A stretch of DNA of 25,194 bases, from positions 1-25,194 of the IMG/VR virus record IMGVR_UViG_3300025128_000306; one strand, written 5' to 3'. Source of the DNA: a virus. Every line of letters starts with the position of its first letter. The first letter of the stretch is position 1. The position numbers were made by a program, and so were the translations under genes. Below the pieces are notes generated by a model that saw nothing but the letters and a program-made list of their open reading frames with translations, made no database searches and was not told where the DNA came from. Positions 1-25,194 of the stretch are shown here, piece by piece.

Positions 1-127
1 GAAGAAAACAAGCACAGGGTACCATGTGTATCAGACCATCGAGTCGACCGTACCTGTGTTCAAGTTCCCTTCACGAGTGACATTGAGTGAACCGATGGGG
101 ACAGAACCACGAGGTGAAGAAGAATGA
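1..127 (+). CDS. C-terminal end of an unknown protein (5' truncated by the window)
   Basis: An open frame runs from base 2 to the TGA at 125-127 and gives a 41-residue C-terminal fragment ending in EPRGEEE. The beginning lies outside the window. I do not recognise it. Its stop overlaps the ATG of the next gene as ATGA, and the last 15 bases are the same stop/start cassette found at two later junctions. That overlap, and the continuity with a packed + strand gene row, are the reasons for calling it coding. Confidence 0.55.
   Translation, partial: KKTSTGYHVYQTIESTVPVFKFPSRVTLSEPMGTEPRGEEE
113..127 (+). repeat. Stop/start coupling cassette, copy 1 of 3
   Basis: The 15-base sequence GGTGAAGAAGAATGA ends one gene (residues GEEE, stop TGA) and starts the next (ATG at 124). 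It contains a GGTGA Shine-Dalgarno-like core eight bases before the ATG. Identical copies lie at 220-234 and 747-761. The match to copy 2 extends two bases further (AG). Confidence 0.85.
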
Positions 128-234
128 AGAAAATTGAGAAGTGGCAATTGATGAATATGTTGGATGAGATGACTAAAGAGGAACTCATCCTATTGAGAAA
201 CCAATTGAATTGTAGGATTGGTGAAGAAGAATGA
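124..234 (+). CDS. 36-residue unknown small protein
   Basis: ATG at 124 overlaps the previous stop as ATGA. The gene encodes 36 residues beginning MKKIEKWQLMNMLDEM and ending RIGEEE. It looks mostly helical, with charged and hydrophobic residues alternating. It lacks cysteines and membrane segments, and I recognise no family. The stop at 232-234 overlaps the ATG of the next gene, so three genes in a row are joined by the same motif. It could be a small regulatory or adaptor peptide, but nothing in the sequence shows this. Confidence rests on the precise coupling at both ends. Confidence 0.5.
   Translation: MKKIEKWQLMNMLDEMTKEELILLRNQLNCRIGEEE
220..234 (+). repeat. Stop/start coupling cassette, copy 2 of 3
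   Basis: Identical 15 bases to 113-127 and 747-761. It again encodes the terminal GEEE and the overlapping ATGA that starts the gene at 231. Confidence 0.85.
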
Positions 235-761
235 AGTTGATAAGAAGACCCGTGTTGAAGAGCGATGACAAAGCGATTGCTCATGCTTTGAAACACATCA
301 ACATGAATCACCCGAACACAGATGGCTACGAGGTCATACTTCACAATTGGGAAAAGAATGGAAAAACATCGTGGTCGGCACGGAAGTGGGCTAATAAGGC
401 TACAATATGGCTACGAAGAATTACTGTTCATACCCCCGATACAGATGGCCTTGGTATTACTTTCATCTTTGAAACGAAACCCGATACTCGTTGGGAATAT
501 GTGAACGGGTACAGTGAATGGGATGGTCGTAAAGATGTGAACTGCCGTACCCTTCGTCTTGTTGATAAAAAGCGTTTAGAATGGGACGACCCTAAAAAGA
601 TGGACCTTCTTGGTGGAAAGGTGGCGGTGGAAGAAGCAATCTATACCACAAATGGCACGACGCTACAACGAAGCGATGCCACGGAAGCAATGCTACGACT
701 GGTGTGTACATGGGTAATGAAGCACGGTTATGAAGCACAAAAGGAAGGTGAAGAAGAATGA
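231..761 (+). CDS. Unknown 176-residue early-region protein
   Basis: ATG at 231 lies in an ATGA overlap with the previous gene, and the SD-like GGTGAAGAAGA sits directly upstream. The 176-residue product is soluble, rich in W, K, R and D, with no signal peptide or membrane segment. Tryptophans are clustered in residues 40-65 and again near WEYVNGYSEWDGR (about 93-105), suggesting a compact globular domain. The C-terminus ends in EGEEE, again through the repeated cassette. I do not recognise the family. Its place at the head of the replication genes suggests an early role, but that is only context. Confidence 0.75.
   Translation: MKLIRRPVLKSDDKAIAHALKHINMNHPNTDGYEVILHNWEKNGKTSWSARKWANKATIWLRRITVHTPDTDGLGITFIFETKPDTRWEYVNGYSEWDGRKDVNCRTLRLVDKKRLEWDDPKKMDLLGGKVAVEEAIYTTNGTTLQRSDATEAMLRLVCTWVMKHGYEAQKEGEEE
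747..761 (+). repeat. Stop/start coupling cassette, copy 3 of 3
   Basis: Identical 15 bases to 113-127 and 220-234. It ends the 176-residue gene and starts the next at ATG 758. A related but diverged form (GGAGTGAATAAGAATGA) precedes the gene at 1023. Confidence 0.85.
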
Positions 762-916
762 CAACTAAAGATGTTCAAGACCGTTATGACAGATTACCCC
801 TTGAACTCAAACAGTGTCTTGTTCAAGGCTGTACGAACCTCCGAACTCCTATCATGGTTTGGCATGGTTTCAAAAGATGTGAAATGGCTAACTGTCTTTA
901 CAAGGGGCGTGCCTGA
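758..916 (+). CDS. Small four-cysteine (putative zinc-binding) protein
   Basis: ATG at 758 is in the third stop/start cassette and the TGA is at 914-916. The 52-residue product has cysteines at 20, 25, 41 and 46 (C-x4-C, then C-x4-C), separated by a basic aromatic stretch. This is the spacing expected of a small zinc-binding knuckle, but I cannot name a family. The next ATG begins at the base right after the stop. It is one of several Cys-rich microproteins in this replication region and could act as a DNA-binding or adaptor protein. Confidence 0.55.
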   Translation: MTTKDVQDRYDRLPLELKQCLVQGCTNLRTPIMVWHGFKRCEMANCLYKGRA

Positions 917-1030: not shown

Positions 1031-1208
1031 GATTGAAGACTTAGAGAAAAAGATTGAGAGCATGGAAGCGTACCTCGACGAACTGATGGTGCGAATTGAA
1101 AGAGCCGAACGACTTGTCGGTGCAGTGGAAGAACTCCAGAACGAAGTTGCCAAGATTAGAGGAGCCCCGGTAGGGATGCTCTTTGATTTCTGGGGGTCTA
1201 AGAAATGA
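1023..1208 (+). CDS. Coiled-coil microprotein with PIP-box-like C-terminal tail
   Basis: A 61-residue protein starting at ATG 1023 behind GGAGTG. Residues 3-46 have a strong heptad-like pattern of leucine, isoleucine and glutamate/lysine, predicting one long coiled coil. The tail, VGMLFDFWGSKK from residue 50, fits the PCNA-interacting pattern xxx-L-xx-F-(F/W), with L53, F56 and W57. It resembles the TLFDFLKK-type tail at the C-terminus of archaeal RFC large subunits, although the usual glutamine is a valine here. The gene overlaps the RFC small subunit gene as ATGA, and PCNA is encoded 3.4 kb downstream. I infer a clamp or clamp-loader tether; the function is untested. Confidence 0.7.
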   Translation: MSEIEDLEKKIESMEAYLDELMVRIERAERLVGAVEELQNEVAKIRGAPVGMLFDFWGSKK

Positions 1209-2146
1209 CTGCGTGGAGAGAGAAGTACCGTCCTCGGACTGTGGCAGACTTGGTAGGTTGTAAGGTGTTCAAGCAACAAGCACAACACTGGTCGTTAGAA
1301 ACGGCACCACCCTGCCTCCTGTTCATCGGAGGCCCCGGTGTCGGCAAAACCACAGCGGCCCGTGCTCTGGCACGGGATTGGCTTGGTGAGTGGTTCGGTC
1401 AAGAGAACTTCATCACCACCAATGCCAGCGATGACCGTGGAATTGGGTATGTCCGTGACCACCTCAAGCACATCTCAAGGCTCAAGGGTCTGATGGTAGC
1501 AAAGCGTGTCATCTTTTTAGACGAGGCTGACTCATTGACCAAGGACGCACAGAAAGCACTGCGTCAAATCATGGAAGACAGTCACGACACTATCATTTGG
1601 ATTCTTGCAGGGAACGACATCTCTGCTTTCCACAAAGCAATCAAGGACAGGTGTACAACATACGAATTCAAGTCGCACGGTCCTAACGAGATAGAGAAAG
1701 CCTGCCTCAAAATCCACGAGGCCGAAGGACTTCCCGAAGAATGGAAGCAGTACTACCGCAACCTTGCTCCCCTCTGCGAAGGCAGTCTGAGGCAGACGGT
1801 TGATACGCTACAATCATTATCAAAGACACCGGAGGCACTGGAGAAAAGAGTCCGGTCCTCTGGTCAAGACATGTCAAGAGCCGCTCTCCACTTAGCGGCA
1901 GGTGACTTTACTACGCTTAACGCATTCCTCAATCAACAGTTAGAGAAAGGCGACAGCCGATTCTATTTGTTGAAGACCCTTCGGTACAAGGCTAAGGGCC
2001 TCATCGAAGAAGGGGATGATTGGTTTGCTTTCATGAAGACCTACGGGGATTTCATGATGATGGCAACACAATGGCCGGATGACGATATGGCCTTCTTTGA
2101 ATACTTCGTCGCCACTCTCCAACAGAATAGGAGGTTGCATAAGTGA
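1205..2146 (+). CDS. rfcS: Replication factor C small subunit (clamp loader AAA+ ATPase)
   Basis: The 313-residue AAA+ ATPase matches the usual length of about 320 for archaeal RFC small subunits. Visible motifs are REKYRPRTVADLVG at the N-terminus, Walker A GGPGVGKT (42-49), TNASDDRGI (72-80), Walker B VIFLDEAD (102-109), sensor 1 AGND (135-138) and KDRC (147-150), which replaces the usual SRC arginine-finger motif. RFC opens PCNA and loads it on primed DNA using ATP. No RFC large subunit is visible here, so the viral protein may form a homomeric loader, borrow the host large subunit, or use the PIP-tailed coiled-coil protein encoded just upstream. Start ATG 1205 overlaps the preceding stop. 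Confidence 0.93.
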   Translation: MTAWREKYRPRTVADLVGCKVFKQQAQHWSLETAPPCLLFIGGPGVGKTTAARALARDWLGEWFGQENFITTNASDDRGIGYVRDHLKHISRLKGLMVAKRVIFLDEADSLTKDAQKALRQIMEDSHDTIIWILAGNDISAFHKAIKDRCTTYEFKSHGPNEIEKACLKIHEAEGLPEEWKQYYRNLAPLCEGSLRQTVDTLQSLSKTPEALEKRVRSSGQDMSRAALHLAAGDFTTLNAFLNQQLEKGDSRFYLLKTLRYKAKGLIEEGDDWFAFMKTYGDFMMMATQWPDDDMAFFEYFVATLQQNRRLHK

Positions 2147-2160
2147 GAATCATTGTCGAA

Positions 2161-5540: not shown

Positions 5541-5731
5541 TGTCTATTTGCGTGGGATGCAGTGAACCCTTTGGGCAATCGGAACTGGTCGACGGAGACT
5601 GGTGTGAGGCCTGTTGGGAAGCGGTATCTCATGTAAAATGCAAACGACCACTCAAGCACCGTCCGAAAATGGAAGGTGTACTACACTGTAAGACATGTGC
5701 AAGGGAGGAGCGTGAGGTCGATGATTGTTGA
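5540..5731 (+). CDS. Zinc-binding microprotein with three CxxC motifs
   Basis: The 63-residue product from ATG 5540 has CxxC at 4-7, 22-25 and 50-53, plus C34 and C63, enough ligands for two zinc sites. A GTG three bases earlier is a possible alternative start, but the ATG sits in a TGATG junction behind GGAGGAAGAG and is preferred. Its 3' end overlaps the PolB start by 11 bases, so PolB translation is probably coupled to it. No family can be named. The middle is basic (KCKRPLKHRPK), which would suit nucleic acid contact. Confidence 0.65.
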   Translation: MSICVGCSEPFGQSELVDGDWCEACWEAVSHVKCKRPLKHRPKMEGVLHCKTCAREEREVDDC

Positions 5732-8108
5732 TGCTTACATTCCCCATTACGAGTCTCGTGATGTACTTTACTGTCGCTGGCGTGACAAGGATGGCTCTCT
5801 CATAGAGAAACATGTGACTGATTTCGAGCCGTACTTCTGGGCCAATGCGTCTGACAGAAACAAGTTAGTCAGCATGGTGTCAGCGTACCCCGGTGCTCGT
5901 ATTGATTGGAATCAAAAGGCCACTGGGCGGAACAAGGAAGAACTCGTGAAGGTCTTACCGTACCGCCACAAGGATATTTGGGGCATGAGAAAACAAGTTG
6001 ATACTTGGGAAGCAGACATGAAATTGTCTGACCGCTACCTCATAGACAGTTGGACACAGATGCCTGATTGGAAGCCGAGAGTATGGCACATCGACCTTGA
6101 GTGGGACCCAAAGGATAAGTTCACCACCGTGATAGGGATAGCCGACAGTCAAAGCGGAGAGCATGTGGCCTTCTGCTGGTCAGAAGAATCAGCCGAACAA
6201 CTCAGGGAATGGGAGTCGGTTGAAACGACCCGCTCTATGGACTGGGAAAACAGTAAGGGTCAGGTATCTGATGTCACATACCGCAGAGTACTGTGCAATT
6301 CAGAGAAAGCCATTTACACCAAGTTCCTTGATTATCTTGAAGAGTGCAACCCCGATGTCATTGTTGCGCACGCTCTTATGTGGGCAGACCTGCCTCATAT
6401 CATCGCTCGTTTGAGCGACCGAAAGGTGCTTGGGAAAGATGCTTATCGTCGCCTCAGCCCTATCGGGAGGGTGATGAAACCTGATGAAAATGGCTACAAG
6501 AAGCCTACAATGCAACCAATCGCTGGTCGTCTGTGTTTTGATACAGCCGCCTCACTTGAGAGCGGTACAGGCTTTGAGCGGGTGTGGAAGGACAGTGGTA
6601 AGCCCCAGTTGGCCAGTCGGAAATTGGACTTTATCACAGGGCCAGACCTGTTGGACTACGGTGGTAAGTTGGAAATGTCCGTATTCACTGGCTGGTACGA
6701 ACGATTCGATGAGTTCGTCGACTATTGTATGCGAGATGTAGCATTGCTCAAGCGTATGGATGAAAACAACCACATACTTGCCTTTTTCTTCGCTCTCCAA
6801 CGAGTATGTGGCGTAGCCTTCGATTCAACTCACAATGTCACCAGATTTGCAAGGGGGCTTATTGGTCGTCGTACAGACACCAAAGCACCTACCAACATGG
6901 ACATCGAGCCGGAAGACTACCCCGGCGGCCACATTCCTGCTCCTACCCCCGGTCGATACCAAAATGTCGCCGTGGTGGATTACAAGCAACTTTACCCCTC
7001 AATTATTCAATCTCATAATCTCAGTTGGGAGTCCCGTGTTGACAGAGAACTACGCTTTGAAGACGATGTACGGGAACTACCTGACGGTACCTGTTGGCGA
7101 CAAGGTAAGCCTGCCCTGTTGCCAAGGATTGTCACCGAGTTGGTCAAACTCCGTGACGAATACAAAGGCAACATGAAGACGGCCGCTGACCCTATCGAAA
7201 GGTCTGGCTGGAACACTATGCAACTCGCAGTAAAAAGGTGTATGGCGTCACTATATGGTATGTGCGCAAGTACTTACTGGGGATGGGCGGCCCCCGACAT
7301 CGCCTCTGCTATCACGGCCTGTGGTCGTGAGGCAGTCAAATTTCTCATGGAAGAATCTGAGAAGCAGGGCTACAATGCACTGTACGGTCACACCGACTCA
7401 GCCTTCGTACAAATCCCATTCGACGAGGTGCCAGCACTTGCTGAGCATCTGACACAGACGGTTCAAAGAGAACACCAAGCAAGTCACTTTATTGTTGAAT
7501 TTGAAGCGTTCATGCCCTACTGGGTCACTGGTGGTAAGAACCTGTACTATGGTATTTGCTCATGGCCTCCAGAGGACGAAGGTAAGGCCAAGTCAGCACG
7601 CTGGGGCAAAATCAGTACCCTGTCTCCTGTGTCGAGGACGCTTGAAAAGGATGTGCTGAACATGCTTTGTAAGGGTGCTGATGAGAACGAAGTAGTCACT
7701 CATGTGAGGGAAATATCTCTGCGAATCAAATCAGGTGACATTGACATACCGGAGGTTTCTGGCGTCACTCGTATTCAAAAGGACCTGTGGGAGTACGCTG
7801 ATAGCGTAGGTGTCCCCGGTGTAAAGGGTGCACGGTACTACAACCTGCACCTCTCTGACCAATTCACTCACCCCATATTCAAGAAGGGTGACAGCGTCAA
7901 ATGGGTCTATGCAAAATCGGACCCTCAAGGTAGGCACATTGATGACATTGTAGCCTATCACGAAACAGAAGACCTTGATGGCTTTACTCTCGACCACGAT
8001 AAGATGGTTCAGAAGTTAGTCGTTGAGAAAATCAAACCTATGTTCAAGGCCATGAAGTGGTCAACAGACTATGCGAGCGGTATGCCTCGCCCCAAAACCT
8101 ACTGGTAG
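5721..8108 (+). CDS. polB: Family B DNA polymerase
   Basis: The protein has 795 residues with ATG 5721 as start; an upstream in-frame ATG at 5676 would place 15 unlikely residues inside the previous gene. Exonuclease motifs: Exo I IDLE (D125, E127), Exo II region AHALMWADL with only D223 conserved, Exo III YCMRD (Y335, D339). Polymerase motifs: A VDYKQLYPSII (D420), B KRCMASLYG (K505, Y512), C YGHTDS (H557, D559). This is the replicative polymerase that would pair with the viral PCNA and RFC. Odd points: motif C has His in place of the first Asp, motif B lacks the usual Asn, and Exo II lacks the NxxxF part. The two main metal-binding carboxylates (D420, D559) are present. No intein is seen. 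Confidence 0.95.
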   Translation: MIVDAYIPHYESRDVLYCRWRDKDGSLIEKHVTDFEPYFWANASDRNKLVSMVSAYPGARIDWNQKATGRNKEELVKVLPYRHKDIWGMRKQVDTWEADMKLSDRYLIDSWTQMPDWKPRVWHIDLEWDPKDKFTTVIGIADSQSGEHVAFCWSEESAEQLREWESVETTRSMDWENSKGQVSDVTYRRVLCNSEKAIYTKFLDYLEECNPDVIVAHALMWADLPHIIARLSDRKVLGKDAYRRLSPIGRVMKPDENGYKKPTMQPIAGRLCFDTAASLESGTGFERVWKDSGKPQLASRKLDFITGPDLLDYGGKLEMSVFTGWYERFDEFVDYCMRDVALLKRMDENNHILAFFFALQRVCGVAFDSTHNVTRFARGLIGRRTDTKAPTNMDIEPEDYPGGHIPAPTPGRYQNVAVVDYKQLYPSIIQSHNLSWESRVDRELRFEDDVRELPDGTCWRQGKPALLPRIVTELVKLRDEYKGNMKTAADPIERSGWNTMQLAVKRCMASLYGMCASTYWGWAAPDIASAITACGREAVKFLMEESEKQGYNALYGHTDSAFVQIPFDEVPALAEHLTQTVQREHQASHFIVEFEAFMPYWVTGGKNLYYGICSWPPEDEGKAKSARWGKISTLSPVSRTLEKDVLNMLCKGADENEVVTHVREISLRIKSGDIDIPEVSGVTRIQKDLWEYADSVGVPGVKGARYYNLHLSDQFTHPIFKKGDSVKWVYAKSDPQGRHIDDIVAYHETEDLDGFTLDHDKMVQKLVVEKIKPMFKAMKWSTDYASGMPRPKTYW

Positions 8109-8140: not shown

Positions 8141-8689
8141 ATGCGAAACATTGATGATGAAATTGTGAAAGCCGTTGAGAAAAACCCCGGACTAAGTCGT
8201 GGCGGTTTGATTAAACAGAACAAACCACTGCAAGATAGAAACAAGCAGTACATAGGCCTGCGATTACAGCACCTTTGTGAAAATGGTTTGATAAGTAAAA
8301 AAGGTGAGCGTAAGGGTACGAGATACTATCCGTGTACAAATCAGGATAACTACGACCCAATAGGCTTCATGAAAAACAAGCAGACCTCGCAGAAAATCAT
8401 TGATGTGTTCGATGAGGTTAAGCGTATGGTCGTCAAGAAAAACCAAGCATACGGTGACAGTATCTTCAAGCCGTCCCGAGTCTTTTACAAGGGCTCTGCT
8501 GAGCCCGGTGATTTGATTCGCATACGCATGGATGATAAGATTAGCCGCCTGATTCAGGGCGACAAGGACATTGGCTCTGACGAAGATGTCATCAAAGACC
8601 TCATGGGCTACTGTGCTATTCTCTTAGTGACCATGCGGGAAGACAAGGAACCACCGCAGAGTTCGATGAGGGATTACTTTGAGTCGTGA
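8141..8689 (+). CDS. Winged-helix domain fused to Nmad1/DUF1599-like domain
   Basis: The 182-residue product has two parts. Residues 1-65 look like a winged helix (EIVKAVEKNPGLSRGGLIKQ, then a recognition-helix-like LRLQHLCENGLISKKG and a wing ending RYYPC). Residues about 85-175 resemble the DUF1599/Nmad1 domain: KKNQAYGDS, then RIRMDDKISRLI and an EDVIKDLMGYCAILL helix with conserved acidic residues. Nmad1 proteins were predicted in phages to take part in DNA nucleotide modification. I chose ATG 8141 because AGGTG stands six bases ahead; a GTG at 8132 would add three residues. A pyrophosphatase-like all-helical domain is an alternative for the C-terminal half. Confidence 0.6.
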   Translation: MRNIDDEIVKAVEKNPGLSRGGLIKQNKPLQDRNKQYIGLRLQHLCENGLISKKGERKGTRYYPCTNQDNYDPIGFMKNKQTSQKIIDVFDEVKRMVVKKNQAYGDSIFKPSRVFYKGSAEPGDLIRIRMDDKISRLIQGDKDIGSDEDVIKDLMGYCAILLVTMREDKEPPQSSMRDYFES

Positions 8690-9635
8690 TTGGTCCGCCT
8701 ACGCTAAGTCCACCTACAAGTGGTACCAAGGGCACGAGAAGATGCTTCGTGTCACGAAATCGAGCCTTACCTCTGATTTTTCTTACTGTCCTAAGCAGTA
8801 CGAGTACAAGCGCATCGACGGACGGAAGTCTCCACAGACAGATGCCATGACTCGTGGTACGAATGTTCACGATGCAATGGAACACTTCTATTTGCATGTC
8901 AAACCAGTGTATAGAAAGGCATACGAGCAAGTCAAAAAGAAAGACCGTGAAGGTGCAATGGAAGCACTCATGGCCTGCCTACCACAGCCAGACGAACCAT
9001 ACACACTGGGTGAAGAACCAATTCTGCGCCAACGCATAGAGTGGGAACTCGTGCGTCTTGAAGCAGACCCTGACAGGTTCCTACCCATCATCAACGAATT
9101 AGAGGTACATGCGTACCAAGATGTGGTTTTTGAGTTCAATGGCGAAAACATCACAGTACCTATTCACTTTGCGGGTAGCATTGACAGAGGCTATGAAACA
9201 GAGGAAGGGAAAGTCGCCTTGATGGAATTGAAGACTGGTAAGTGGAAACCTACCAACTTCAAGATACGAGGTATGCGTACTGAGATGGCCTTTTACATGG
9301 ACCTCTTGCAGAAGGCAGAACACCCACTGAAAGATGTGACCCATTGGGGCTGGTTTTACCCAGCAGGGGAACGACCTGATGAGCATGGTACACAGAACGA
9401 TGTGACCTACGAGAAAGTGAACCGTCGCTACCTGACCTCACTACGAAACCAACTCAACAATCTTCTGGAGGCATACTTCACGAACAATTTCAAACCCGAC
9501 CCAAGCCCCGGAAAGTGCGCTTGGTGTGATTTCATAGCAGAGTGTCCTGCTTGGCAGGATGATGGTGATAAGTATTGGAAGATGCCACCAACTCGCCTTG
9601 AGAAACAAAGAAAACGGGAGGAGGCCCAAGAATGA
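8679..9635 (+). CDS. Cas4/RecB-like PD-(D/E)XK exonuclease with Fe-S cysteines
   Basis: The 318-residue protein shows the Cas4/RecB nuclease pattern: SSLTSDFSYCPKQYEYKR with C37, a conserved H64 in GTNVHDAMEHF, D169 in FAGSIDR, then E183 and K185 in MELKTGK, and a TExxFYM helix near 201-208. Three C-terminal cysteines, C280, C283 and C289, together with C37 make the four ligands of the Cas4/AddB-type 4Fe-4S cluster. The enzyme would be an ssDNA or dsDNA end-processing nuclease in recombination-driven replication. The start is a TTG at 8679 overlapping the previous gene by 11 bases, with GAGG upstream; ATG 8742 (residue 22) is the alternative. There is no CRISPR array nearby, so a viral replication role is likelier than adaptation. 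Confidence 0.8.
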   Translation: MSRDWSAYAKSTYKWYQGHEKMLRVTKSSLTSDFSYCPKQYEYKRIDGRKSPQTDAMTRGTNVHDAMEHFYLHVKPVYRKAYEQVKKKDREGAMEALMACLPQPDEPYTLGEEPILRQRIEWELVRLEADPDRFLPIINELEVHAYQDVVFEFNGENITVPIHFAGSIDRGYETEEGKVALMELKTGKWKPTNFKIRGMRTEMAFYMDLLQKAEHPLKDVTHWGWFYPAGERPDEHGTQNDVTYEKVNRRYLTSLRNQLNNLLEAYFTNNFKPDPSPGKCAWCDFIAECPAWQDDGDKYWKMPPTRLEKQRKREEAQE

Positions 9636-10961: not shown

Positions 10962-11169
10962 TTGGTGCAGATTTTGTGGAAGGAAAATCAACCCGAGTAC
11001 ACAAGGGAAAAGGAGAAAAAAACCCATGTGCTACACCTGTCGGGAAGCAGGTGCTCCAGATGAGTTCAGATGCAAAGGTACCAATTCAAGTAAAAAAAGG
11101 TGCAAACAATGGGCCCTTGAAGACAAGAATTACTGTGTTTCGCACAAACATCTGGAGGATAAAAAATGA
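10951..11169 (+). CDS. 72-residue double zinc-knuckle protein
   Basis: ATG 10951 overlaps the primase stop by 11 bases. Cysteines form two sets: C6-x2-C9 with C27-x2-C30, and C41-x9-C51-x10-C62-x2-H65. The second set resembles the short phage domain that ends in a C-x2-H pair (DUF5763-like). The segments between them are very basic (GKRRKKP, SSKKRCK), so DNA binding is plausible. It sits, translationally coupled, between the primase and the ERCC4 nuclease. A much longer reading frame upstream in the same phase overlaps the primase and is not used. Confidence 0.7.
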   Translation: MAVNWCRFCGRKINPSTQGKRRKKPMCYTCREAGAPDEFRCKGTNSSKKRCKQWALEDKNYCVSHKHLEDKK

Positions 11170-11876
11170 GTACACCACCCCTAATTGTCGATAGCAACGA
11201 ACGAGGCCCTCTGTACGAAGCAGTGGAACGCATGGCCCGTAAGGAGGGTATCTTGGTCAAATCTCAATTCCTACAAGGGATGGGAGATTACAAAGCAGGT
11301 GACGGACATGTTGAGTGTAAAAGCCTCAACGACTTCTTCCAATCCAGCCATAGCGGTCACTTGTGGCGTCAACTCGACAACCTCGACGCCAATTGTGGGC
11401 GTGTGTTTTTGGTTGTCCATGGTGACATTGCCAAGTACATCAAGATGGCACAGGCACGAGGTAAGAAGACTTCATACTCACGAGTCACCAACGAATTGAT
11501 GGGTACTTTTGCCCGCATCATGGCTGATTTCGATTGTCATATTTACAAAGCCAAGGACCATGTGGAAGCCGCAATGTTCCTTGTCAAATTACATCAAAAG
11601 TTGCATAAGCCAGCCAGTAGGCATGGTGCAAGGGCGGTCACAAGAGTGTCCACTAACGATGTACGGCAGGACATGTTGCTCGCAATTCCGGGCTTTGGTC
11701 CCGATTTAGTCAGTAAGTTAATCGACAAATGTGGCAGTATTGAGGAGATGGTTTATATCGAATCACTGAAACGGGTCAAAGGTATGGGACCCGTATTGCG
11801 CCAAAGGCTCATCGATGTTCTTACATCGGAAGAAGCCGTGCGTGTCGAGAAAACATATCAGAAACGGAGAGAATGA
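11166..11876 (+). CDS. XPF/ERCC4-type structure-specific nuclease with HhH domain
   Basis: The 236-residue product has an ERCC4 nuclease core: VDSNERG (D9, E12, R13), GMGDYKAGDG (D41) and VECKSLNDF (E50, K52), a variant of the canonical ERKxxxD signature with Cys in place of Arg. After a basic linker it carries two helix-hairpin-helix motifs, IPGFGPDLVSKLI (about 173-185) and VKGMGPVLRQRLI (about 203-215). It would cut branched DNA such as flaps, forks or recombination intermediates as a dimer. No helicase domain or C-terminal PIP box is present, unlike many archaeal XPF/Hef proteins. ATG 11166 overlaps the preceding stop as ATGA. Confidence 0.9.
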   Translation: MSTPPLIVDSNERGPLYEAVERMARKEGILVKSQFLQGMGDYKAGDGHVECKSLNDFFQSSHSGHLWRQLDNLDANCGRVFLVVHGDIAKYIKMAQARGKKTSYSRVTNELMGTFARIMADFDCHIYKAKDHVEAAMFLVKLHQKLHKPASRHGARAVTRVSTNDVRQDMLLAIPGFGPDLVSKLIDKCGSIEEMVYIESLKRVKGMGPVLRQRLIDVLTSEEAVRVEKTYQKRRE

Positions 11877-14059: not shown

Positions 14060-15565
14060 ATGACCGAGAAAAAACAAACAGCACAGAGCCTAAACATCAG
14101 AGCCGCTAAAGCGATTGCCGACACAGTTCGGTCAACGCTTGGACCAGCGGGGATGGACAAAATGATGGTTGACGGGGGTGGCAATGTCATCGTGACAAAC
14201 GATGGCGCTACAATCCTACAACAACTTGACATCACCCACCCCGGTGCGAAGATGATTGTTGAAGCCGCAAACACGCAAGAAACCATGTGCTACGATGGCA
14301 CTACGACTACGACAATTCTGGCTGGCGAACTGCTGGCCAATACACAAGAACTGTTCAACAAAGGATTGCATCCTAATGTAGTCTGCAAAGGGTATCGTCA
14401 AGCCGCCAAGTGGGCAGTGGAACACATCAATGGTATCACCGTCGAAGACATCGAGCCGTACCTACGAGAAGTGGCAAGGACCGCTATTACAGGCAAAGCA
14501 CTGGAGAGCAACGAGGAGCAAGTCAGTGCCCTCTGCGTTGAGGCAGTCAATCGTGCCAAGGGCGACATCAAGCGCATCAGCGTCGTGTGTCAACCGGGCG
14601 GCTCACTGGAAGATTCGTACTGTTTCTCTGGCAAAATCTTGAATCAGACTTTCATGATGTCAAGCATGAAGAACGAGCCTACACCACAGGTAGTCCTCAT
14701 TAACTCTGGACTTTCCAAGAAAGAAGACAGCGTACAAGTCAATGTGTCAAATGTTGGTGACTACAAGTCGTATCAAGAATATGCTAACAAGGACATCTGG
14801 CAAGAGAAGGTGGAAAAAATCGCCAACCTACTACCGAAAGGTGGAGTTGTCTTCTGCCGTGATTCAGTCAACGAACTGGTAGCGGCCCTGCTTTCCAAGA
14901 ACAACATCAGTGTTGCTCAGCGAGTCCCTCCGAGCGACATGGAGGCCATGGCTATCCTCCTCGGCACGACAGTGGCCCACTCAGTCGAAGACTTGAATGG
15001 TGCTGACCCAGCAGGCAAGGTGCTTCAATTCACCATGGGTGATATGCAATACATCAGCATCGAGGATGTCCACGGTGGAGAAAACACCGTCACTACCTTG
15101 GTCCTACGAGGAGCCACACGCCAGACACTCGACGAAACGGAACGAGGCTTCGACGACGCATTGGGCGTGGTCTGCCTTGCTTTCAACAGCGAGCGCATCG
15201 TCAGAGGAGGAGGCTCGTCTTACATGAACGCCGCCCTCAACCTGCGCTCCCGTGCCGCTGAAATCGGCGGTCGGGCACAGATGGCTATCGAAGCCTTTGC
15301 CAACGCCTTGGAGAGCATCCCTGCTACCATTGCGCAGAACGCAGGTCACGACCCGCTGGACACCATCCTTGAGTTGAGGAACGAACATCTGCAAGGCAAC
15401 TTTGATTACGGCCCCGATATTTACAACGGCGGTACAATCTCAATGGAAGGGGCGAATGTATGGGAACCGTACGAACTTGTGAAGCAGGCTATTCAGTCAG
15501 CAAGCGAGGTCAGCATTAGCATCCTACGCATCGATGACATCATTGGACGGAAGTCTGAGGATTGA
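14060..15565 (+). CDS. Group II chaperonin (thermosome subunit)
   Basis: The 501-residue product has thermosome signatures: STLGPAGMDKMM (25-36), NDGATIL (47-53), YDGTTTTT (78-85, with D79), ERGFDDAL (361-368, with D366 in the place of the catalytic Asp) and RIDDII near the end. ATG 14060 follows AGAGGA; a longer upstream frame overlaps the exonuclease and is not used. The protein is shorter than cellular thermosomes (about 545) and lacks the Gly/Met-rich C-terminal tail. GGGSSYM replaces the usual GGGAxE, so the ring interior or inter-subunit contacts may be specialised. Viral chaperonins are thought to fold capsid or tail proteins. Its 3' end overlaps the convergent gene by 26 bases. Confidence 0.95.
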   Translation: MTEKKQTAQSLNIRAAKAIADTVRSTLGPAGMDKMMVDGGGNVIVTNDGATILQQLDITHPGAKMIVEAANTQETMCYDGTTTTTILAGELLANTQELFNKGLHPNVVCKGYRQAAKWAVEHINGITVEDIEPYLREVARTAITGKALESNEEQVSALCVEAVNRAKGDIKRISVVCQPGGSLEDSYCFSGKILNQTFMMSSMKNEPTPQVVLINSGLSKKEDSVQVNVSNVGDYKSYQEYANKDIWQEKVEKIANLLPKGGVVFCRDSVNELVAALLSKNNISVAQRVPPSDMEAMAILLGTTVAHSVEDLNGADPAGKVLQFTMGDMQYISIEDVHGGENTVTTLVLRGATRQTLDETERGFDDALGVVCLAFNSERIVRGGGSSYMNAALNLRSRAAEIGGRAQMAIEAFANALESIPATIAQNAGHDPLDTILELRNEHLQGNFDYGPDIYNGGTISMEGANVWEPYELVKQAIQSASEVSISILRIDDIIGRKSED

Positions 15566-16535: not shown

Positions 16536-17375
16536 TCAATGTCTAATCAAATTATCCTCTTGACCTTTGAGAATGTCCTTCACGACATCCAGAGCAGGGC
16601 GTAAGTCGGCTTCCTTAATGCCGCAGTTGAATCCCCATACATTGAGATGGCGCACCAAGGCTTCGGTCGATAGGTTAGCCCCACTGCCCTTGGCAAAGGG
16701 ACAGCCGCCAAGACCACCGATGCTTGAGTCGAACTGCTTGATACCACTCATCAGGCCGCTTCTGACAAGACTCAGGGCACTTGCTTCGTCACCCTTGTGG
16801 TGCAAGTGAAGAGCAGGGGTCAAACCCTCATCTTGGGCCATTTCAGCCCACAGCGCCACTTCTTGACGAGTGCCACAGCCTACTGTGTCAGAAAATACAA
16901 CAGTTGTCCCGAACATCTTAGCGTCCCGTAAGCACAGCCGCATCATTGATGAAGAAACTTCACCACTGTGTGGCGAGCCAAATGCCATAGAAAGGTACAC
17001 TCGTACTTTCTCCTTGGGTACCTTGTCCATGAATGTCTTGTACATCAGAACAATCTCTGAGCGAGTCTTACCCATGTTTTGGATGTTGAATGTTTCACAT
17101 GGACTGAACACGATGTTGATTTTATCGACGCCTGATTGCTGTGCACGAAGGAAGCCTCGCTTGTTCATGACAAGTCCAGCGCCTTTGTTGTACACGGCCT
17201 CTGCGTCAGCCATCTGTGGCAGAACCTTTGGGTGAGCAAATGAAACTTCTTCGATGTCGGTGATGCCAGAGGCGTACAGTTCCTTTATCAGAAGCCTTTT
17301 GGTTTTTGTACTGACCACAGTGCCCAAAGCCTGCAACCCATCTCTTGGTCCGACTTCATAGACACTAATGTTCAT
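16536..17375 (-). CDS. Hydroxymethylglutaryl-CoA lyase (auxiliary metabolic gene)
   Basis: A 279-residue TIM-barrel metallolyase. It retains the family signature and the catalytic set expected for HMG-CoA lyase: EVGPRDGLQ (R11, D12), E43 in EEVSFAHPK, SDTVGCGT (162-169), HLH metal ligands H180 and H182, and GGLGGCPFAKG with C215, then N224 nine residues later as in the human enzyme. The reaction splits HMG-CoA into acetoacetate and acetyl-CoA. The start at 17375 is preferred to an earlier in-frame one because it overlaps the upstream stop as ATGA and has GGAAGGG ahead. In an archaeal host it could feed leucine/acetyl-CoA catabolism or drain the mevalonate precursor of membrane lipids. It is unusual in a virus-like context. 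Confidence 0.92.
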   Translation of the reverse strand: MNISVYEVGPRDGLQALGTVVSTKTKRLLIKELYASGITDIEEVSFAHPKVLPQMADAEAVYNKGAGLVMNKRGFLRAQQSGVDKINIVFSPCETFNIQNMGKTRSEIVLMYKTFMDKVPKEKVRVYLSMAFGSPHSGEVSSSMMRLCLRDAKMFGTTVVFSDTVGCGTRQEVALWAEMAQDEGLTPALHLHHKGDEASALSLVRSGLMSGIKQFDSSIGGLGGCPFAKGSGANLSTEALVRHLNVWGFNCGIKEADLRPALDVVKDILKGQEDNLIRH

Positions 17376-17527
17376 TGCTGACCCTTCCGCAACCCGTCCA
17401 TACACATTTCTTGCAATTCAGCACTGTCAGTGAAGAATACAACATCGGAGCCTAAGTCATCTGTGACATACCAAGTGAACAAAAATCCGCAGATAAAACT
17501 CAAGATAAAAAACAGCCAAAGACCCAT
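17372..17527 (-). CDS. 51-residue small membrane protein coupled to HMG-CoA lyase
   Basis: Reading from ATG 17527 leftwards gives 51 residues: MGLWLFFILSFICGFLFTWYV is one clear membrane helix, followed by a polar acidic tail and a short basic end. The TGA at 17374-17372 overlaps the lyase ATG (ATGA), so the two are probably co-translated. There is no family assignment. It could anchor or regulate, or act as a small viral membrane protein such as a holin-type peptide. The AT-rich promoter element lies about 25 bases upstream of its start, suggesting that it is the first gene of this transcript. Confidence 0.6.
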   Translation of the reverse strand: MGLWLFFILSFICGFLFTWYVTDDLGSDVVFFTDSAELQEMCMDGLRKGQQ

Positions 17528-17546
17528 GTGCAGGGACAGCGCGGTG

Positions 17547-21384: not shown

Positions 21385-21599
21385 TCTTCACCCCTCCATG
21401 CATCACATGTGCACTTACTGTTGCACTCAAAATCGAATAACTTGCACTTGCCCATGCCTTCTCCTTTAGCGACCCAGTGTCGGCAGTTGCCACATCGTTC
21501 GTTTTGGTTATCTGCTGGACAACGATAATTTGGAGCGTCCTCCTTTGCTTTAAGTAGCGTCCAAGCCATGTTCAAAGCGTCGGCATCCATGTTGCTCAC
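21381..21599 (-). CDS. Seven-cysteine late protein with AWxxLK N-terminus
   Basis: The 72-residue product begins at GTG 21599 (GTGA overlap with the large gene); ATG 21590, three codons in and six bases behind a GGAG, is an equally plausible start. The N-terminus DALNMAWTLLKAKED carries the shared motif. It is followed by C27, C36-x2-C39, C52, C59, C63 and C65 in RCGNCRHW, GKCKLFDFEC and KCTCDAW, a spacing like metal- or Fe-S-binding phage proteins (HiPIP-like pattern). Function is unknown; a virion or assembly role is inferred from the operon. Confidence 0.65.
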   Translation of the reverse strand: MSNMDADALNMAWTLLKAKEDAPNYRCPADNQNERCGNCRHWVAKGEGMGKCKLFDFECNSKCTCDAWRGEE

Positions 21600-24500
21600 T
21601 CCGTGCTGTGGTCACCGCTATTAAAAGATGTATCGCCTTTACTGCCCTTTGGGTGTAATGTTTGACTGTGACGGGGCTCAACAGAGTAGTCTTCCTTTCT
21701 TGCGGCATCGCTTCTGAAATGCTCCAGTGTGTTCTCACTCATTGTGATACGGGCTACTGGTTGCGTGATGTCAGTCTTGTCATAACCAGACACATCGACT
21801 CCGAGAATCTTAGGTCCTTGGCTCACTGCGGCACTGTTAGCAGGGTTGACACTGTACACAGGTGCGTACGGTGGACTGCTTGGTGTACCTGTACGAGCAG
21901 AGGCCGCATCGCTGGTATAGATACCATACTTCCCACCTGCTGTGGCGGCGTAAAATGTACCGCCTGCTTGAGGTGCTCCTGACTTTACTGCCATGTTAGA
22001 ACGGAACAACTGTACATGTGAGTTATCTAAAACAAAGGCTGGTCTAACCAAAAACTCAATTTCAGAGTCAGCGTGGTTTATGTTCTCAGTCACCGAAGTG
22101 TGATTACTATCTTGGTATGGATTGGAGGAAGAAGTTGCTCCGGCCTCGCCCCAGCCAGTCACATCGAGTGCACCTGCTCTGCGCTTCCAATTCATAACAT
22201 AGGTACCACCAAGAGCCCAGAATGAGTGTGCATCAGACACCTTGATGATGCCTTTTACAGGTTGCCCTGTCCAGTCCAGTGCAGTCATATCGAGGTGACC
22301 AAGTGTACGATTGCCGACATTCATGGCTCCTCTGAGTGTCGTTCGCTGACCAACATCTCTGTTGCTGTGTAGGCTGTGCGCTTCTGTCGACATAACCACA
22401 TACTCACGGCTCACACCGTCGTTGAGTTCTCCGAGTGTGTCAACATCCAATCCAATCCGCACACCGTCACCGCCGACAGGCTCTGCAAGCATGGTGTCCG
22501 TGGTGATTGATTCAGTCGTTTCATTGACCATTGCAGTCGGCTTGAGAAGCCCATCATCGTCAGCGAGGTCGAGGCGTGCACTGATACCACGGTCTGTTTC
22601 ACCGGCTTGCAATACATCGTTTCTCGGGCGAACTAAGCCCTTACCAACGGTAGGCTCAGCAGTCGGTTGAGACAGCACCAGCCCTGTCGGCTCAACGGTT
22701 TCAGAAATATCCATGAGGAGGCTTTCGTTGAAATGTGTAGGCCACCGTACACCACGCCCATCCCCTCGGTCACCTACTCGCATAGCGTTCGTTGGGTTGA
22801 ACCAATCCACGATAGCCATAGCCGCTACATCGTTATTGGCTGTGTTGGAATTGCCACTCTGTCGGTCAGTACTGGTGGCAAAGAGGCCATTCGCTTCTGG
22901 TCGATTGCCACTGCCGCCGTCTTCGTATGCATCTTCTGGGTCCCACGCAGGAGAAATACCGAAGCCACGCACTGGGAAGCGACGGACATCTTCTCCACGA
23001 GTGTTGCCCCACCAGTCAACCATGTAGTAGCGGTGTGCTTGAGCAATCTCTGCAATTTCTAAGCCCGCCCTGTCACCTGCGTACATCCTTCGTACACTGG
23101 ACGAGTTGCGGATTGTACGAACAGGACAGCCAAAAGCACGAGTCATTCTGCGTCCGTCGCTGTATCTGACTTGGCGGCCCAATTGGTCTTGATTGAGCAA
23201 TGCACTAATTTGAGTAAGTCGTTCCAAAACACCCGTGTAAGTTGCAGGATAATCAGTGCCGCCTACCCAACCGTCATCTTTGTTATCTTGCTGGATGAAT
23301 GGTCCATGGTAATAACCAAGCAAAGCATTGGCGTTAGCCACTTCCAAGTAGCCTCGGACATAAGGCGACCAGCGTGGGCGATTGTACGGTTGACGCAAAG
23401 CAAAGCGATAGCCAAAGCAAGTATTTCGGGCATTATCAGATGCTGTCGTCATCTGTGCGTATGTTCGCTCTTCAAGACCAGTGTTGTCATGGAAACTCAC
23501 ACAGTCAACTCCGAATAACTTCCCACCCCATCCAATGAGTGTTTCAAGGAAACCATCTAAACGACTGGAGCCTGCTCCTCCTCTGGAACCACCCGGCCAA
23601 TAGCCTGCGAAATTGTATTTGTCCGAACCAATAGTGCCTCCTTGATGCGAAAGATTACCGTCACCATCCATGTCAGCACCACTTTTAGTGGTACCAGTTC
23701 CACCTGTACCTGCCGCACCGGGCGGTATAATCCACCTCATTCCAAATGTGAACGGACCTTTAGAGGCCGCATAGAAGAAATCATTGTAGTGAATTGTTTC
23801 AAAGTGTTCAGGGACATTGTTGAGTCCTTTCTTGAGAACAGGTGTATCTGTTGCTCCGTTCTTGTCGTAAAAGCCTCTGCTGTTGTCATCGGAGTAGTAA
23901 GTGAAAGGACGGCCCAAGTTCGGATGCCACATACACAAATACGCATCAGCAAGATGTAGGCTGTTTGTATCACGAGTACCATTCATGGTTTGTGGCATAA
24001 CCCGAGTTGTCATGCTGACAAGCGAATTAGTGAAAATTTCATCTGCCTTCCGGTTGTCATAAGGCCCGCTTAAACGAATAATTGTGTCATTGGTTAAGTT
24101 GTCAAAGAATAGAGGAGTGACTTCCGTGACACCTTGGAACTGTGTAGGCGTCCCAAGAGTAGCGTGGGCCAATGTTCCTGTTCGGTTTGTGTAGGTAGCC
24201 GTCTGCCTTTCCCCGTTAGCATCTGTGTATTCCAAAACCTCTCCGTAGTATGCTTTGACTGGGAACAGTTCAGCATTATCCACATTGACTGTACTGCCTC
24301 CAGCAGATGAGGCTGTGACCTTAGCATTGGGGTTCAAAGAGCGAACACGATAGTGCTCTGCGTAAATGTCAGGGTAGCATGTAGGATAACCAGCAAGTGT
24401 AATCTGAGCACCTACTGCGCCAAAGGTAGCCCTGTTCATCTGATAGTAGTGGTCAGGTGTATGCCACTCCAAATGTCTGAAATGTGTAGCGGCTGATGCA

Positions 24501-25194
24501 GTTGCTCCGTCCTTGTGCAACTGTGCCCACCACGGCACTGTGAGCGTAAATCCGGGTGTAGTCTGAATGAACATGTTGGGGTGGTAGGGCAAGGTGCGTC
24601 TGCTAAATGCAGGTGATGTAGTCTCTTCTACACCAAGAGCGTTGTAGTTGGCCAATGGAGGCAGGTTTGTGAATTGGCTGGAGGCATCAGGCTCAAGGTC
24701 GAGCATAATTTCATTGAGCATAATTTCACAACCTCTGACATCCGCCATGGTTGCCTCTGCCAAAATCAAGGTATAGGCACCATTTGTGTTGCTCCCGTCA
24801 TCGTGAGCGATGGCGACCACGGTGTTCACCTGTTGCCCTGTCAATTCTGTGACCTTAGTACCAGATTCGGATGGGGCCTTCACTGCGTCTGAATGGTTGC
24901 TGTGATAACCAGAGAATTGTTGCTTGAACACATTTGGCTGAATAATAATCTGATATGCTCCGACTTCCATAGGGTCAGGGAAATGGTCGTTGAGAGTGTA
25001 GGAACCAGCCGCCTCTAACACAATGGAGTGGCCTCCCTGTGAATTAGTCGTGCCTGCACTACCTTTCGATGCGGCTATCCCGTAGCCGTCGAATTTGACT
25101 TTGGTTTCAGTCAAGAGAGTGAATGCCCCGCCGTGTATGTCAGAAGGTCCGTATGGTGCAGACGCACCTGAGAACCAAACCAGAGGGTCACGAG
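21596..25194 (-). CDS. Very large virion-like protein (5' truncated by window)
   Basis: The frame stays open from the window's right edge (through 25193) to the stop at 21596-21598. A TTG at 25114 could give 1172 residues, but sequence upstream of it (DPLVWFSGASAPYGPSDIHGG) looks coding, so the gene continues beyond the window and has at least 1198 residues. Composition is Gly, Asn, Thr, Ser and Tyr rich with many short beta motifs, and no membrane or signal segment within the visible part. Tyr/Trp-rich blocks (YMVDWWGNTRGEDVRRFPVRG, about 716-736) recur. This suits a large tail, baseplate or host-recognition protein, not an enzyme. The family is not recognised. Confidence 0.6.
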   Translation of the reverse strand, partial: RDPLVWFSGASAPYGPSDIHGGAFTLLTETKVKFDGYGIAASKGSAGTTNSQGGHSIVLEAAGSYTLNDHFPDPMEVGAYQIIIQPNVFKQQFSGYHSNHSDAVKAPSESGTKVTELTGQQVNTVVAIAHDDGSNTNGAYTLILAEATMADVRGCEIMLNEIMLDLEPDASSQFTNLPPLANYNALGVEETTSPAFSRRTLPYHPNMFIQTTPGFTLTVPWWAQLHKDGATASAATHFRHLEWHTPDHYYQMNRATFGAVGAQITLAGYPTCYPDIYAEHYRVRSLNPNAKVTASSAGGSTVNVDNAELFPVKAYYGEVLEYTDANGERQTATYTNRTGTLAHATLGTPTQFQGVTEVTPLFFDNLTNDTIIRLSGPYDNRKADEIFTNSLVSMTTRVMPQTMNGTRDTNSLHLADAYLCMWHPNLGRPFTYYSDDNSRGFYDKNGATDTPVLKKGLNNVPEHFETIHYNDFFYAASKGPFTFGMRWIIPPGAAGTGGTGTTKSGADMDGDGNLSHQGGTIGSDKYNFAGYWPGGSRGGAGSSRLDGFLETLIGWGGKLFGVDCVSFHDNTGLEERTYAQMTTASDNARNTCFGYRFALRQPYNRPRWSPYVRGYLEVANANALLGYYHGPFIQQDNKDDGWVGGTDYPATYTGVLERLTQISALLNQDQLGRQVRYSDGRRMTRAFGCPVRTIRNSSSVRRMYAGDRAGLEIAEIAQAHRYYMVDWWGNTRGEDVRRFPVRGFGISPAWDPEDAYEDGGSGNRPEANGLFATSTDRQSGNSNTANNDVAAMAIVDWFNPTNAMRVGDRGDGRGVRWPTHFNESLLMDISETVEPTGLVLSQPTAEPTVGKGLVRPRNDVLQAGETDRGISARLDLADDDGLLKPTAMVNETTESITTDTMLAEPVGGDGVRIGLDVDTLGELNDGVSREYVVMSTEAHSLHSNRDVGQRTTLRGAMNVGNRTLGHLDMTALDWTGQPVKGIIKVSDAHSFWALGGTYVMNWKRRAGALDVTGWGEAGATSSSNPYQDSNHTSVTENINHADSEIEFLVRPAFVLDNSHVQLFRSNMAVKSGAPQAGGTFYAATAGGKYGIYTSDAASARTGTPSSPPYAPVYSVNPANSAAVSQGPKILGVDVSGYDKTDITQPVARITMSENTLEHFRSDAARKEDYSVEPRHSQTLHPKGSKGDTSFNSGDHSTE

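What the first reader, a model, noticed from the sequence alone, without database searches (positions are those of the whole stretch)
1..25194. GATC, CTAG, AGCT and ACGT appear to be completely absent
Reading every line and line boundary, I found no GATC and no CTAG. A second pass found no AGCT and no ACGT. At this base composition each would be expected on the order of 100 times. Other 4-base palindromes such as GTAC, CATG, TCGA, GGCC and TGCA are frequent, so this is not general palindrome loss; CGCG is very rare (one seen at 17540-17543). Complete loss of four palindromes across both strands and both modules points to strong restriction or motif-targeting selection by the host. Site loss of this type is established for some haloarchaeal viruses, but I know of no report for marine group II viruses. 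My counts are manual.
Basis: partly seen in the sequence, partly recalled or inferred. Interest (0 to 1): 0.85.

Follow-up and report, generated by a model that had tools for sequence, protein, structure and literature searches.

The report
Ocean archaeal virus purged restriction sites
This stretch of a marine archaeal virus holds no copy of at least nine short DNA words, most of them likely restriction-enzyme sites, and the five four-letter words it lacks or nearly lacks are the same five that are rarest in one sampled lineage of its likely hosts, so the losses look like an adaptation to restriction enzymes.

Summary
The count is right and understates the effect. The window has 0 GATC, CTAG, AGCT, ACGT and 1 CGCG (expected 87, 37, 89, 76, 45), and also 0 CCWGG, GCWGC, GTWAC and CTGAAG. 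It matches part of a 90-kb magrovirus-like record where the losses persist and more words vanish. In 80 related viral loci plus the window, AGCT is absent from 81 of 81, CCWGG from 79 of 79 testable, GATC from 66 of 81; ACGT, CTAG, TCGA, GTAC and others come and go between clades. Pelagiphage-type controls often lack GATC too, and CCWGG is missing in two reference phages, but none lacks AGCT, ACGT or CTAG. In pooled Poseidoniales loci GATC, AGCT and CCWGG are the lowest words of their classes; in the ~50% GC sample the five rarest of 136 tetranucleotides are exactly the window's five. Best explanation: restriction sites purged under Poseidoniales restriction-modification pressure. Unsolved: recognisable host systems are sparse, with none identified for AGCT, ACGT, CTAG or CGCG. 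Site avoidance is a known kind; lost asymmetric words and the host-matched set are the new parts.

The parts
1..25194 (.). Whole window: zero GATC, CTAG, AGCT, ACGT, CCWGG, GCWGC, GTWAC, CTGAAG, GGATAC; one CGCG
17540..17543 (.). The single CGCG, in the gap between the HMGL-like ORF (16536-17405) and an 88-aa ORF (17651-17917)
1205..2146 (+). AAA ATPase, clamp-loader (RFC small subunit) type; supports magrovirus identity
   Evidence: PF00004, DNA_pol3_delta2; clamp loader among the PHROGs of the G001 proteins
5676..8108 (+). Family B DNA polymerase; query that found the first ten relatives
8679..9635 (+). PD-(D/E)XK nuclease (PDDEXK_1); considered and rejected as a virus-encoded restriction enzyme
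11166..11876 (+). ERCC4-type nuclease; considered and rejected as a restriction enzyme
14060..15565 (+). Group II chaperonin (Cpn60_TCP1); its relatives gave the tree of 81 rows. Start moved by me from 13910 to the ATG after the preceding ORF
16536..17405 (-). HMGL-like gene (HMG-CoA lyase is a listed magrovirus auxiliary gene)
21596..25192 (-). 3' part of a giant ORF (5,168 aa in G001, tail or fibre by guess) running off the window

Best explanation
The window is part of a roughly 90-kb tailed virus of the magrovirus group (lytic by analogy with that group) that infects Poseidoniales (Marine Group II archaea). Its DNA has been stripped, mainly by synonymous changes, of the recognition sites of many restriction enzymes met in its host population: a core of AGCT, CCWGG and GATC shared by nearly the whole sampled virus group, plus a lineage-specific set (here CTAG, ACGT, CGCG, GCWGC, GTWAC, CTGAAG and several six-base palindromes). 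Incoming unmethylated viral DNA with no sites cannot be cut, so no viral methyltransferase is needed. Shown: the loss, that it exceeds what proteins and codon usage predict, conservation of the core, turnover of the rest, and a match of the four-base words and CCWGG with words depleted in sampled host genomes. Inferred: the host itself, that the agents are host restriction-modification systems, and which enzymes they are.
For: Counts and nulls. G001, which holds all but the left end of the window, over 90,220 bases: AGCT 0/309, GATC 0/290, ACGT 0/244, CTAG 0/121, CGCG 3/186, GCWGC 0/173, CCWGG 0/146, GTWAC 0/72. Palindromes are the target: 7 of 31 six-base palindromes with expectation of at least 8 are absent, against 5 of 3,478 non-palindromic six-mers. 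Tree of 81 rows: fewest changes 0 for AGCT and CCWGG, 2 for GATC and GTWAC, 3 to 13 for TCGA, GTAC, GCWGC, CTAG, CTGAAG, CCAGA, ACGT, CGCG. Host match: in 475 kb of host loci GATC (0.47) and AGCT (0.53) are the two lowest of 136 tetranucleotides and CCWGG (0.70) the lowest of 32 five-base W/S palindromes, while 1.1 Mb of other, nearly all archaeal, loci give GATC 0.91 and AGCT 1.12. In 10 host loci of GC at least 0.48 the five lowest are AGCT, GATC, CGCG, CTAG, ACGT, and again in 419 kb of one 2.06-Mb contig, G025. Four low-GC host loci do not deplete CTAG (0.95), and 3 of 54 low-GC viral loci lack it, against 18 of 21 at GC 0.46-0.54 and 6 of 6 above. Controls never lack AGCT, ACGT or CTAG where testable. 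Some hosts carry fitting genes: Dam-type methyltransferases closest to DpnM, one MvaI/BcnI-family enzyme in chromosomal context. A relative, G002, encodes an ArdA-family antirestriction protein. Profiles built from host methyltransferases found none in G001, G002 or G004.
Against: Recognisable host systems are few: DpnII-family enzyme 0 of 186, MjaI-family (CTAG) 0 of 186, MvaI/BcnI 2 of 186 of which one lies on a T4-like phage contig, C5 methylase 24 of 186. G025 shows one PF01555 match and one Eco57I-domain match (43 bits) and none for PF02086, PF00145, PF15515, PF04556, PF09568 or PF01420; other families, such as PF02384, were not searched. GCWGC, GTWAC, CTGAAG and the six-base palindromes tested are not depleted in G025. 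AGCT is ordinary in some host loci: L056 69/70, L081 42/49, L431 58/63, L441 90/71, L442 37/37, L445 23/27. In the group without PF01555 TATA (0.62) lies between GATC and AGCT, and in the group with it and in G025 TTWAA is slightly below CCWGG. By GC class the match is partial: 39 of 54 low-GC viral loci lack ACGT although four low-GC host loci do not deplete it (0.95), and only 10 of 21 mid-GC loci lack CGCG. Loss of GATC, and of CCWGG in HF2 and HTVC011P, is not specific to this group. No call proves which host this virus infects.
Confidence: 0.8

Rival explanations
1. The restriction enzymes are carried mainly by mobile elements and competing viruses in the same host population rather than by host chromosomes; site loss is a defence in virus-virus conflict.
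For: A 73-kb T4-like phage contig binned with G156 carries an MvaI-family enzyme and two methyltransferases and keeps CCWGG (104 of 141) while lacking CCGG (0 of 57). Host chromosomes show few such genes. PMC8651126 (section 9 read) reports apparently functional R-M pairs in some archaeal tailed viruses.
Against: That contig is probably a bacterial phage binned by mistake (my inference). Sampled host genomes deplete the same five words, which suggests long exposure of chromosomes.
Confidence: 0.12
2. The virus encodes its own site-specific nucleases against host or rival DNA and is immune because its genome lacks the sites.
For: The group carries PD-(D/E)XK and ERCC4 nucleases; the Apasviridae profile lists 'restriction enzyme-like nucleases' (PMC12999244, whole text read). 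One G001 protein matches a homing-endonuclease model of PADLOC, E 1.4e-12.
Against: PDDEXK_1 and ERCC4 are, to my knowledge, exonuclease-like and structure-specific families. Among the listed families of 57 G001 proteins the only restriction-labelled ones are helicase-domain matches of one SNF2 helicase (ResIII, ZorD, DpdE, DrmD and a fusion named DNA methyltransferase), though each list was cut at 25 families. One virus would need about ten enzymes, and the sets change quickly between close relatives.
Confidence: 0.04
3. Shared mutational or compositional bias: the virus copies the host's oligonucleotide habits.
For: The same five tetranucleotides are lowest in G025 and absent or nearly absent in the virus.
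Against: Host values are 0.33 to 0.67, the virus is at zero or nearly so. Products of C-to-T change are not clearly enriched in G025 (AGTT 1.02, GATT 1.11, CTAA 1.06, ACAT 0.96, CGCA 0.89, CGTG 0.84). GCWGC, GTWAC and CTGAAG are ordinary in G025 but absent or nearly so in the virus. Close relatives differ in whole words.
Confidence: 0.03
4. Artefact of library preparation or assembly.
For: All these viral sequences come from collections of metagenome-type contigs.
Against: Contigs of 73 to 105 kb from several samples carry the gaps, in clade-specific sets on a protein tree; control contigs from the same collection keep AGCT, ACGT and CTAG.
Confidence: 0.01

Closest known systems
Palindrome avoidance in HF1-group haloviruses (PMC7230728, passages read)
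   Same: Tailed archaeal viruses with zero GATC and CTAG, AGCT absent in one (HRTV-7), twenty-one six-base palindromes absent in all; explained by host restriction. An HF2 stretch also lacks CCWGG (0/27).
   Different: Other host order and environment. Here AGCT and CCWGG are absent across the sampled group; ACGT, CGCG, GCWGC and GTWAC are added in the window's clade; asymmetric words are lost on both strands; and the four-base set matches words depleted in host genomes.
Motif purging or self-methylation in haloarchaeal tailed viruses (PMC8651126, section 9 and passages read)
   Same: Viruses without the Dam methyltransferase lack GATC; the authors infer escape from restriction by methylation or by purging.
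   Different: Many of those viruses encode methyltransferases or 7-deazaguanine pathways; G001 has no recognised methyltransferase and lacks many words at once.
Restriction-site avoidance in prokaryotic viruses (PMC6286503, passages and part 1 of 2 of the Discussion read)
   Same: Site elimination, strongest in non-temperate dsDNA phages, against orthodox Type II systems.
   Different: That survey saw no elimination of Type I or Type IIG sites and few under-represented Type III sites; here asymmetric words such as CTGAAG, CCAGA, TGACA and TGACCA are absent or nearly so on both strands in one or more records. That these are Type IIG or III sites is recalled or unknown, not tested.

Membership tests
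Order Magrovirales (magroviruses) | dsDNA tailed-virus genome of about 90-110 kb | tested here: met
   Window lies in G001, 90,220 bases (completeness not given); relatives G002 and G004 are 104,980 and 103,328
Order Magrovirales (magroviruses) | Replication and morphogenesis modules in opposite directions; PolB, RFC-S, nucleases, chaperonin, HMG-CoA lyase | tested here: met
   against the profiles; DNA ligase, primase and MCM were not looked for one by one
Order Magrovirales (magroviruses) | Capsid protein related to Druskaviridae | tested here: met
   G001 capsid protein 32.4-34.6% identical to HVTV-1, HCTV-5, HCTV-1 and near relatives over 98% of its length
Order Magrovirales (magroviruses) | Sequence relation to the named reference genomes OR863078 or ON649702 | not testable with these tools
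   Neither accession is held
Order Magrovirales (magroviruses) | Host is Poseidoniales | tested here: inconclusive
   Indirect: depleted-word match; the HMGL search found no host relative and had no positive control
Viral restriction-site avoidance | Sites absent beyond chance under models that keep composition and proteins | tested here: met
Viral restriction-site avoidance | Avoided words are mainly short palindromes | tested here: met
   7 of 31 palindromic against 5 of 3,478 non-palindromic six-mers absent in G001
Viral restriction-site avoidance | Cognate restriction enzymes in the host | tested here: inconclusive
   Dam/DpnM-type methyltransferases and one chromosomal MvaI/BcnI-type enzyme found; none identified for CTAG, AGCT, ACGT, CGCG
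Viral restriction-site avoidance | Cleavage of site-bearing DNA and escape of site-free DNA | not testable with these tools
   needs experiment

The most novel reading that the evidence does not exclude
The absent-word set is a readable record of a large and partly uncharacterised restriction repertoire in Poseidoniales. A lineage represented by G025 has been under selection against AGCT, CGCG, CTAG, GATC and ACGT although almost no canonical methyltransferase or restriction gene was recognised in it, which would mean restriction systems unlike the known families, or ones that come and go faster than genome collections capture. Word sets could then assign uncultured viruses to host lineages.
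Probability: 0.25. Interest if true: 0.8.

Novelty: new variant of a known kind. Interest (0 to 1): 0.6.

Why it matters
Poseidoniales are abundant uncultured ocean archaea whose defences are little known. My searches 'Poseidoniales' with 'restriction-modification', and 'Marine Group II' with 'restriction-modification' and 'virus', gave 1 and 8 papers; I read passages of two of them (PMC7318539, PMC8651126) and saw no report of site loss in magroviruses. The magrovirus survey PMC10160649 does not hold the words restriction, methyltransferase or palindrom. Two further searches returned one unrelated paper and none. The magrovirus papers PMC5434244 (2017) and PMC11706807 (2025) are not held, so a report there cannot be excluded. 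If the reading holds, viral genomes give a list of motifs against which host enzymes can be sought, a sequence-only clue to link virus and host lineages, and a case of complete loss of asymmetric words, which an earlier survey did not see for Type IIG systems.

Tried and rejected
Virus-encoded enzymes: families of 57 G001 and 71 G002 proteins listed (each list cut at 25 families), and profiles from host methyltransferases run on ORFs of 90 aa or more of 12 joined records and 90 viral loci; viral hits only in G014 (28-789), G006 (63182-63961) and the T4-like contig G156:C62 (two). The C5 profile was built from 9 of 20 loci, and the host control set gave it a single hit, so its negative result is weak. 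Deamination as the cause of host depletion: not supported. The MvaI-family hit of G156 was first read as a host system; searches show a T4-like phage contig, so only G026 counts, and its enzyme is nearly as close to R.BcnI as to R.MvaI. HMG-CoA-lyase gene as a host link: no match in 186 genomes. A link between the conserved PF01555 methyltransferase and AGCT depletion: groups with and without it both deplete AGCT (0.40 and 0.64), so no case.

Rows dropped or doubtful: L036 (genome G022) was in the host pool but left out; it shows ordinary GATC (68/69) and AGCT (58/38), and its place in Poseidoniales is not established. L285, L287, L295 and L298 were left out as virus-like, L206 for the same reason. 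L012, L056, L081 and L087 are titled only as euryarchaea; I took them as Poseidoniales from recall. Much of the pool surrounds methyltransferase genes, and some loci may be contaminants (L292 holds a small-GTPase-like ORF). The control pool includes one record titled bacterium (L041). One search used 76 of 80 viral loci (10 kb or more) and 43 of 80 control loci (8 kb or more). In one search, of 20 loci 15 had 5 kb or more; 10 made the high-GC set, 4 the low-GC set, 1 lay between. 'Absent' means under 0.05 of expectation; in the GC table, under 0.1. Viral loci are not independent: 81 rows hold 62 different chaperonins, and L091 is the same virus as the window. Restriction-enzyme names attached to words, and the gene names pgk and peptidase, are recalled or read from the sequence, not from a call.


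Full report
Observation. The recount confirms the finding exactly: 0 GATC, 0 CTAG, 0 AGCT, 0 ACGT and 1 CGCG (at 17540) in 25,194 bases, against third-order Markov expectations of 87, 37, 89, 76 and 45. Two further nulls agree: no palindrome was absent in 300 second-order Markov sequences, and 200 synonymous codon shuffles of 21 gene segments, which keep the proteins and the codon usage, gave 25 to 99 copies of each of these five words against none in the genes. The loss can therefore be made by codon choice alone. The effect is larger than reported: CCWGG, GCWGC, GTWAC, CTGAAG and GGATAC are also absent (shuffled means 44, 44, 44, 16 and 9; whole-window counts).

Setting. The window is held as a virus record of 25,194 bases. 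From about position 1026 on it is nearly identical to bases 12,097-36,265 of G001, a 90,220-base record; the left end is rearranged. Gene content fits magroviruses: family B polymerase, clamp-loader ATPase, PD-(D/E)XK and ERCC4 nucleases, group II chaperonin, HMG-CoA-lyase-like gene, replication and structural genes on opposite strands, as in the ICTV profiles (PMC12999244 and PMC10768690, whole texts read). The G001 capsid protein is 32-35% identical to those of HVTV-1 (Druskaviridae), HCTV-5 and HCTV-1. Reference magrovirus genomes were not available for direct comparison.

Whole genome. In G001 the counts are AGCT 0/309, GATC 0/290, ACGT 0/244, CTAG 0/121, CGCG 3/186, GCWGC 0/173, CCWGG 0/146, GTWAC 0/72, CTGAAG 2/43, GGATAC 0/21, CTACAG 1/31. 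Of 31 six-base palindromes with expectation of at least 8 that hold none of the shorter words, 7 are absent (CCCGGG, TTCGAA, GATATC, CTGCAG, AATATT, AGCGCT, GGCGCC); of 3,478 non-palindromic six-mers, 5. Other full records show their own sets, some with asymmetric words absent on both strands: TGACA 0/176 in G008; CCAGA 0/102 and CTGAAG 0/46 in G005; TGACCA 0/56 in G006.

Relatives. Ten loci found by the polymerase all lack the four words. Eighty loci found by the chaperonin, plus the window, give (absent = under 0.05 of expectation): AGCT 81 of 81, CCWGG 79 of 79 testable, GATC 66 of 81, ACGT 52, CGCG 51, CTAG 25, GCWGC 10, TCGA 9, GTAC 4 of 81; AGCT and CCWGG counts are zero in every one of these rows. 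On the chaperonin tree the fewest changes are AGCT 0, CCWGG 0, GATC 2, GTWAC 2, TCGA 3, GTAC 3, GCWGC 3, CTAG 5, CTGAAG 6, CCAGA 8, ACGT 11, CGCG 13. So there is a fixed core and a fast-changing periphery.

Controls. Of 43 pelagiphage-type loci of at least 8 kb, 32 lack GATC and one lacks AATT. AGCT is testable in 43 and absent in 0 (pooled 0.92), ACGT in 31 and 0, CTAG in 43 and 0, TCGA in 18 and 0, CCWGG in 8 and 0 (pooled 0.36), GCWGC in 16 and 4, CGCG in one only. HTVC011P (30 kb) itself has GATC 0/58, TCGA 0/16 and CCWGG 0/19; HF2 (25 kb) GATC 0/117, CTAG 0/53, CCWGG 0/27, TGCA 1/25; HVTV-1 (30 kb) GATC 0/121; a P-SSM2 stretch lacks none of the 12 palindromes tested. Loss of GATC and CCWGG is thus shared with unrelated viruses; loss of AGCT and ACGT is not seen in these controls, and CTAG only in HF2.

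Hosts. In 475 kb of loci taken as Poseidoniales, GATC (0.47) and AGCT (0.53) are the two lowest of 136 tetranucleotides and CCWGG (0.70) the lowest of 32 W/S five-base palindromes: the same three words that form the viral core. In 1.1 Mb of other, nearly all archaeal, loci GATC is 0.91 and AGCT 1.12. In smaller samples the order is less clean: TATA (0.62) lies between GATC (0.59) and AGCT (0.64) in the group without PF01555, and TTWAA lies just below CCWGG in the group with it. Splitting the latter by GC, the ten high-GC loci have AGCT, GATC, CGCG, CTAG, ACGT as the five lowest (0.37 to 0.71), and 419 kb of G025 give the same five (0.33 to 0.67). A random pick would hit this set once in 4,368 among the 16 palindromes. 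GC was used as the split because the window's GC is 0.49; the choice was made after one search had shown the pattern in single loci, so G025, of which 399 kb were fetched later, is the cleaner test, though its first 20 kb had been seen. Four low-GC host loci do not deplete CTAG or ACGT (0.95 each). Only 3 of 54 low-GC viral loci lack CTAG, in agreement, but 39 of 54 lack ACGT, against it. AGCT is ordinary in six of the host loci examined.

Mechanism. Site loss protects unmodified DNA from Type II enzymes; this is the accepted reading for phages (PMC6286503) and haloarchaeal viruses (PMC7230728; PMC8651126). Here it goes with absence of a recognised viral methyltransferase in G001, G002 and G004 and, in G002, an ArdA-family protein. 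Host genes that fit: D12 methyltransferases (PF02086 in 27 of 186 genomes, 11 of them below 1e-20, one of these being G156, whose two loci I treated as virus-like), of which those of G204 and G086 have DpnM as nearest solved relative, the former beside a BglII-family enzyme and a C5 methylase; an MvaI/BcnI-family enzyme beside a methyltransferase in G026. Two genomes carry a methyltransferase beside a Tsp45I-family enzyme (by profile in G190; by likeness of the sequence start in G155), whose word GTSAC is not avoided by G001 (304/260). A PF01555 match is found in 111 of 193 genomes (105 over the cut-off); in five loci inspected it is a methyltransferase gene between what I read as pgk and a peptidase gene, with no restriction gene seen beside it.

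What does not fit. Enzymes for CTAG (MjaI family) and GATC (DpnII family) were found in 0 of 186 genomes; nothing was found for AGCT, ACGT or CGCG, for which no family was at hand to search. G025, whose five lowest words match, has almost no recognised system. Either the systems are accessory and lost from assemblies, or they turn over, or they belong to unrecognised families. Host depletion is not explained by C-to-T change.

Verdict. A real, strong and group-wide case of restriction-site purging in magrovirus-like viruses, with a host-matched word set. The kind of phenomenon is known; its breadth, the asymmetric words and the host match make it a new variant.

Noticed in passing
L349-L428 (pelagiphage-type loci): GATC is absent in 32 of 43 loci of at least 8 kb related to the capsid protein of Pelagibacter phage HTVC011P; CCWGG is low in the pool (0.36).
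   Followed up: partly
L208, L226, L235, L303, L304: A conserved PF01555 methyltransferase of about 320 aa lies between what reads as pgk and a peptidase gene in Poseidoniales genomes, with no restriction gene seen beside it.
   Followed up: partly
G002 (L176-L181): A relative of the window virus encodes an ArdA-family antirestriction protein, E 6.5e-23.
   Followed up: no
G156:C62 (L328-L331): A 73-kb T4-like phage contig binned with a genome of the Poseidoniales set carries an MvaI-family R-M pair and a second methyltransferase; it lacks CCGG (0/57) and has few AGCT (47/166).
   Followed up: partly
window 1-1025: The left end differs from G001: the first 125 bases match 504 bases further along than the rest, and the 176-aa ORF at 231-761 lies in the rearranged part.
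   Followed up: partly
G001 32667-48173 (window 21596-25192): Giant ORF of 5,168 aa, tail or fibre by guess.
   Followed up: no
G014 28-789; G006 63182-63961: Two relatives carry a methyltransferase-like gene (N4/N6 type and D12 type); G014 belongs to the clade in which GATC is only partly depleted.
   Followed up: no
G001 proteins (A1): One protein matches a homing-endonuclease model of PADLOC, E 1.4e-12; which one was not traced.
   Followed up: no
L272, L274, L278, L289: Host-set loci with varied R-M genes: DUF6996/DUF6997 beside a methyltransferase (L272), Tsp45I family (L274), HNH beside a methyltransferase (L278), BglII family (L289).
   Followed up: partly
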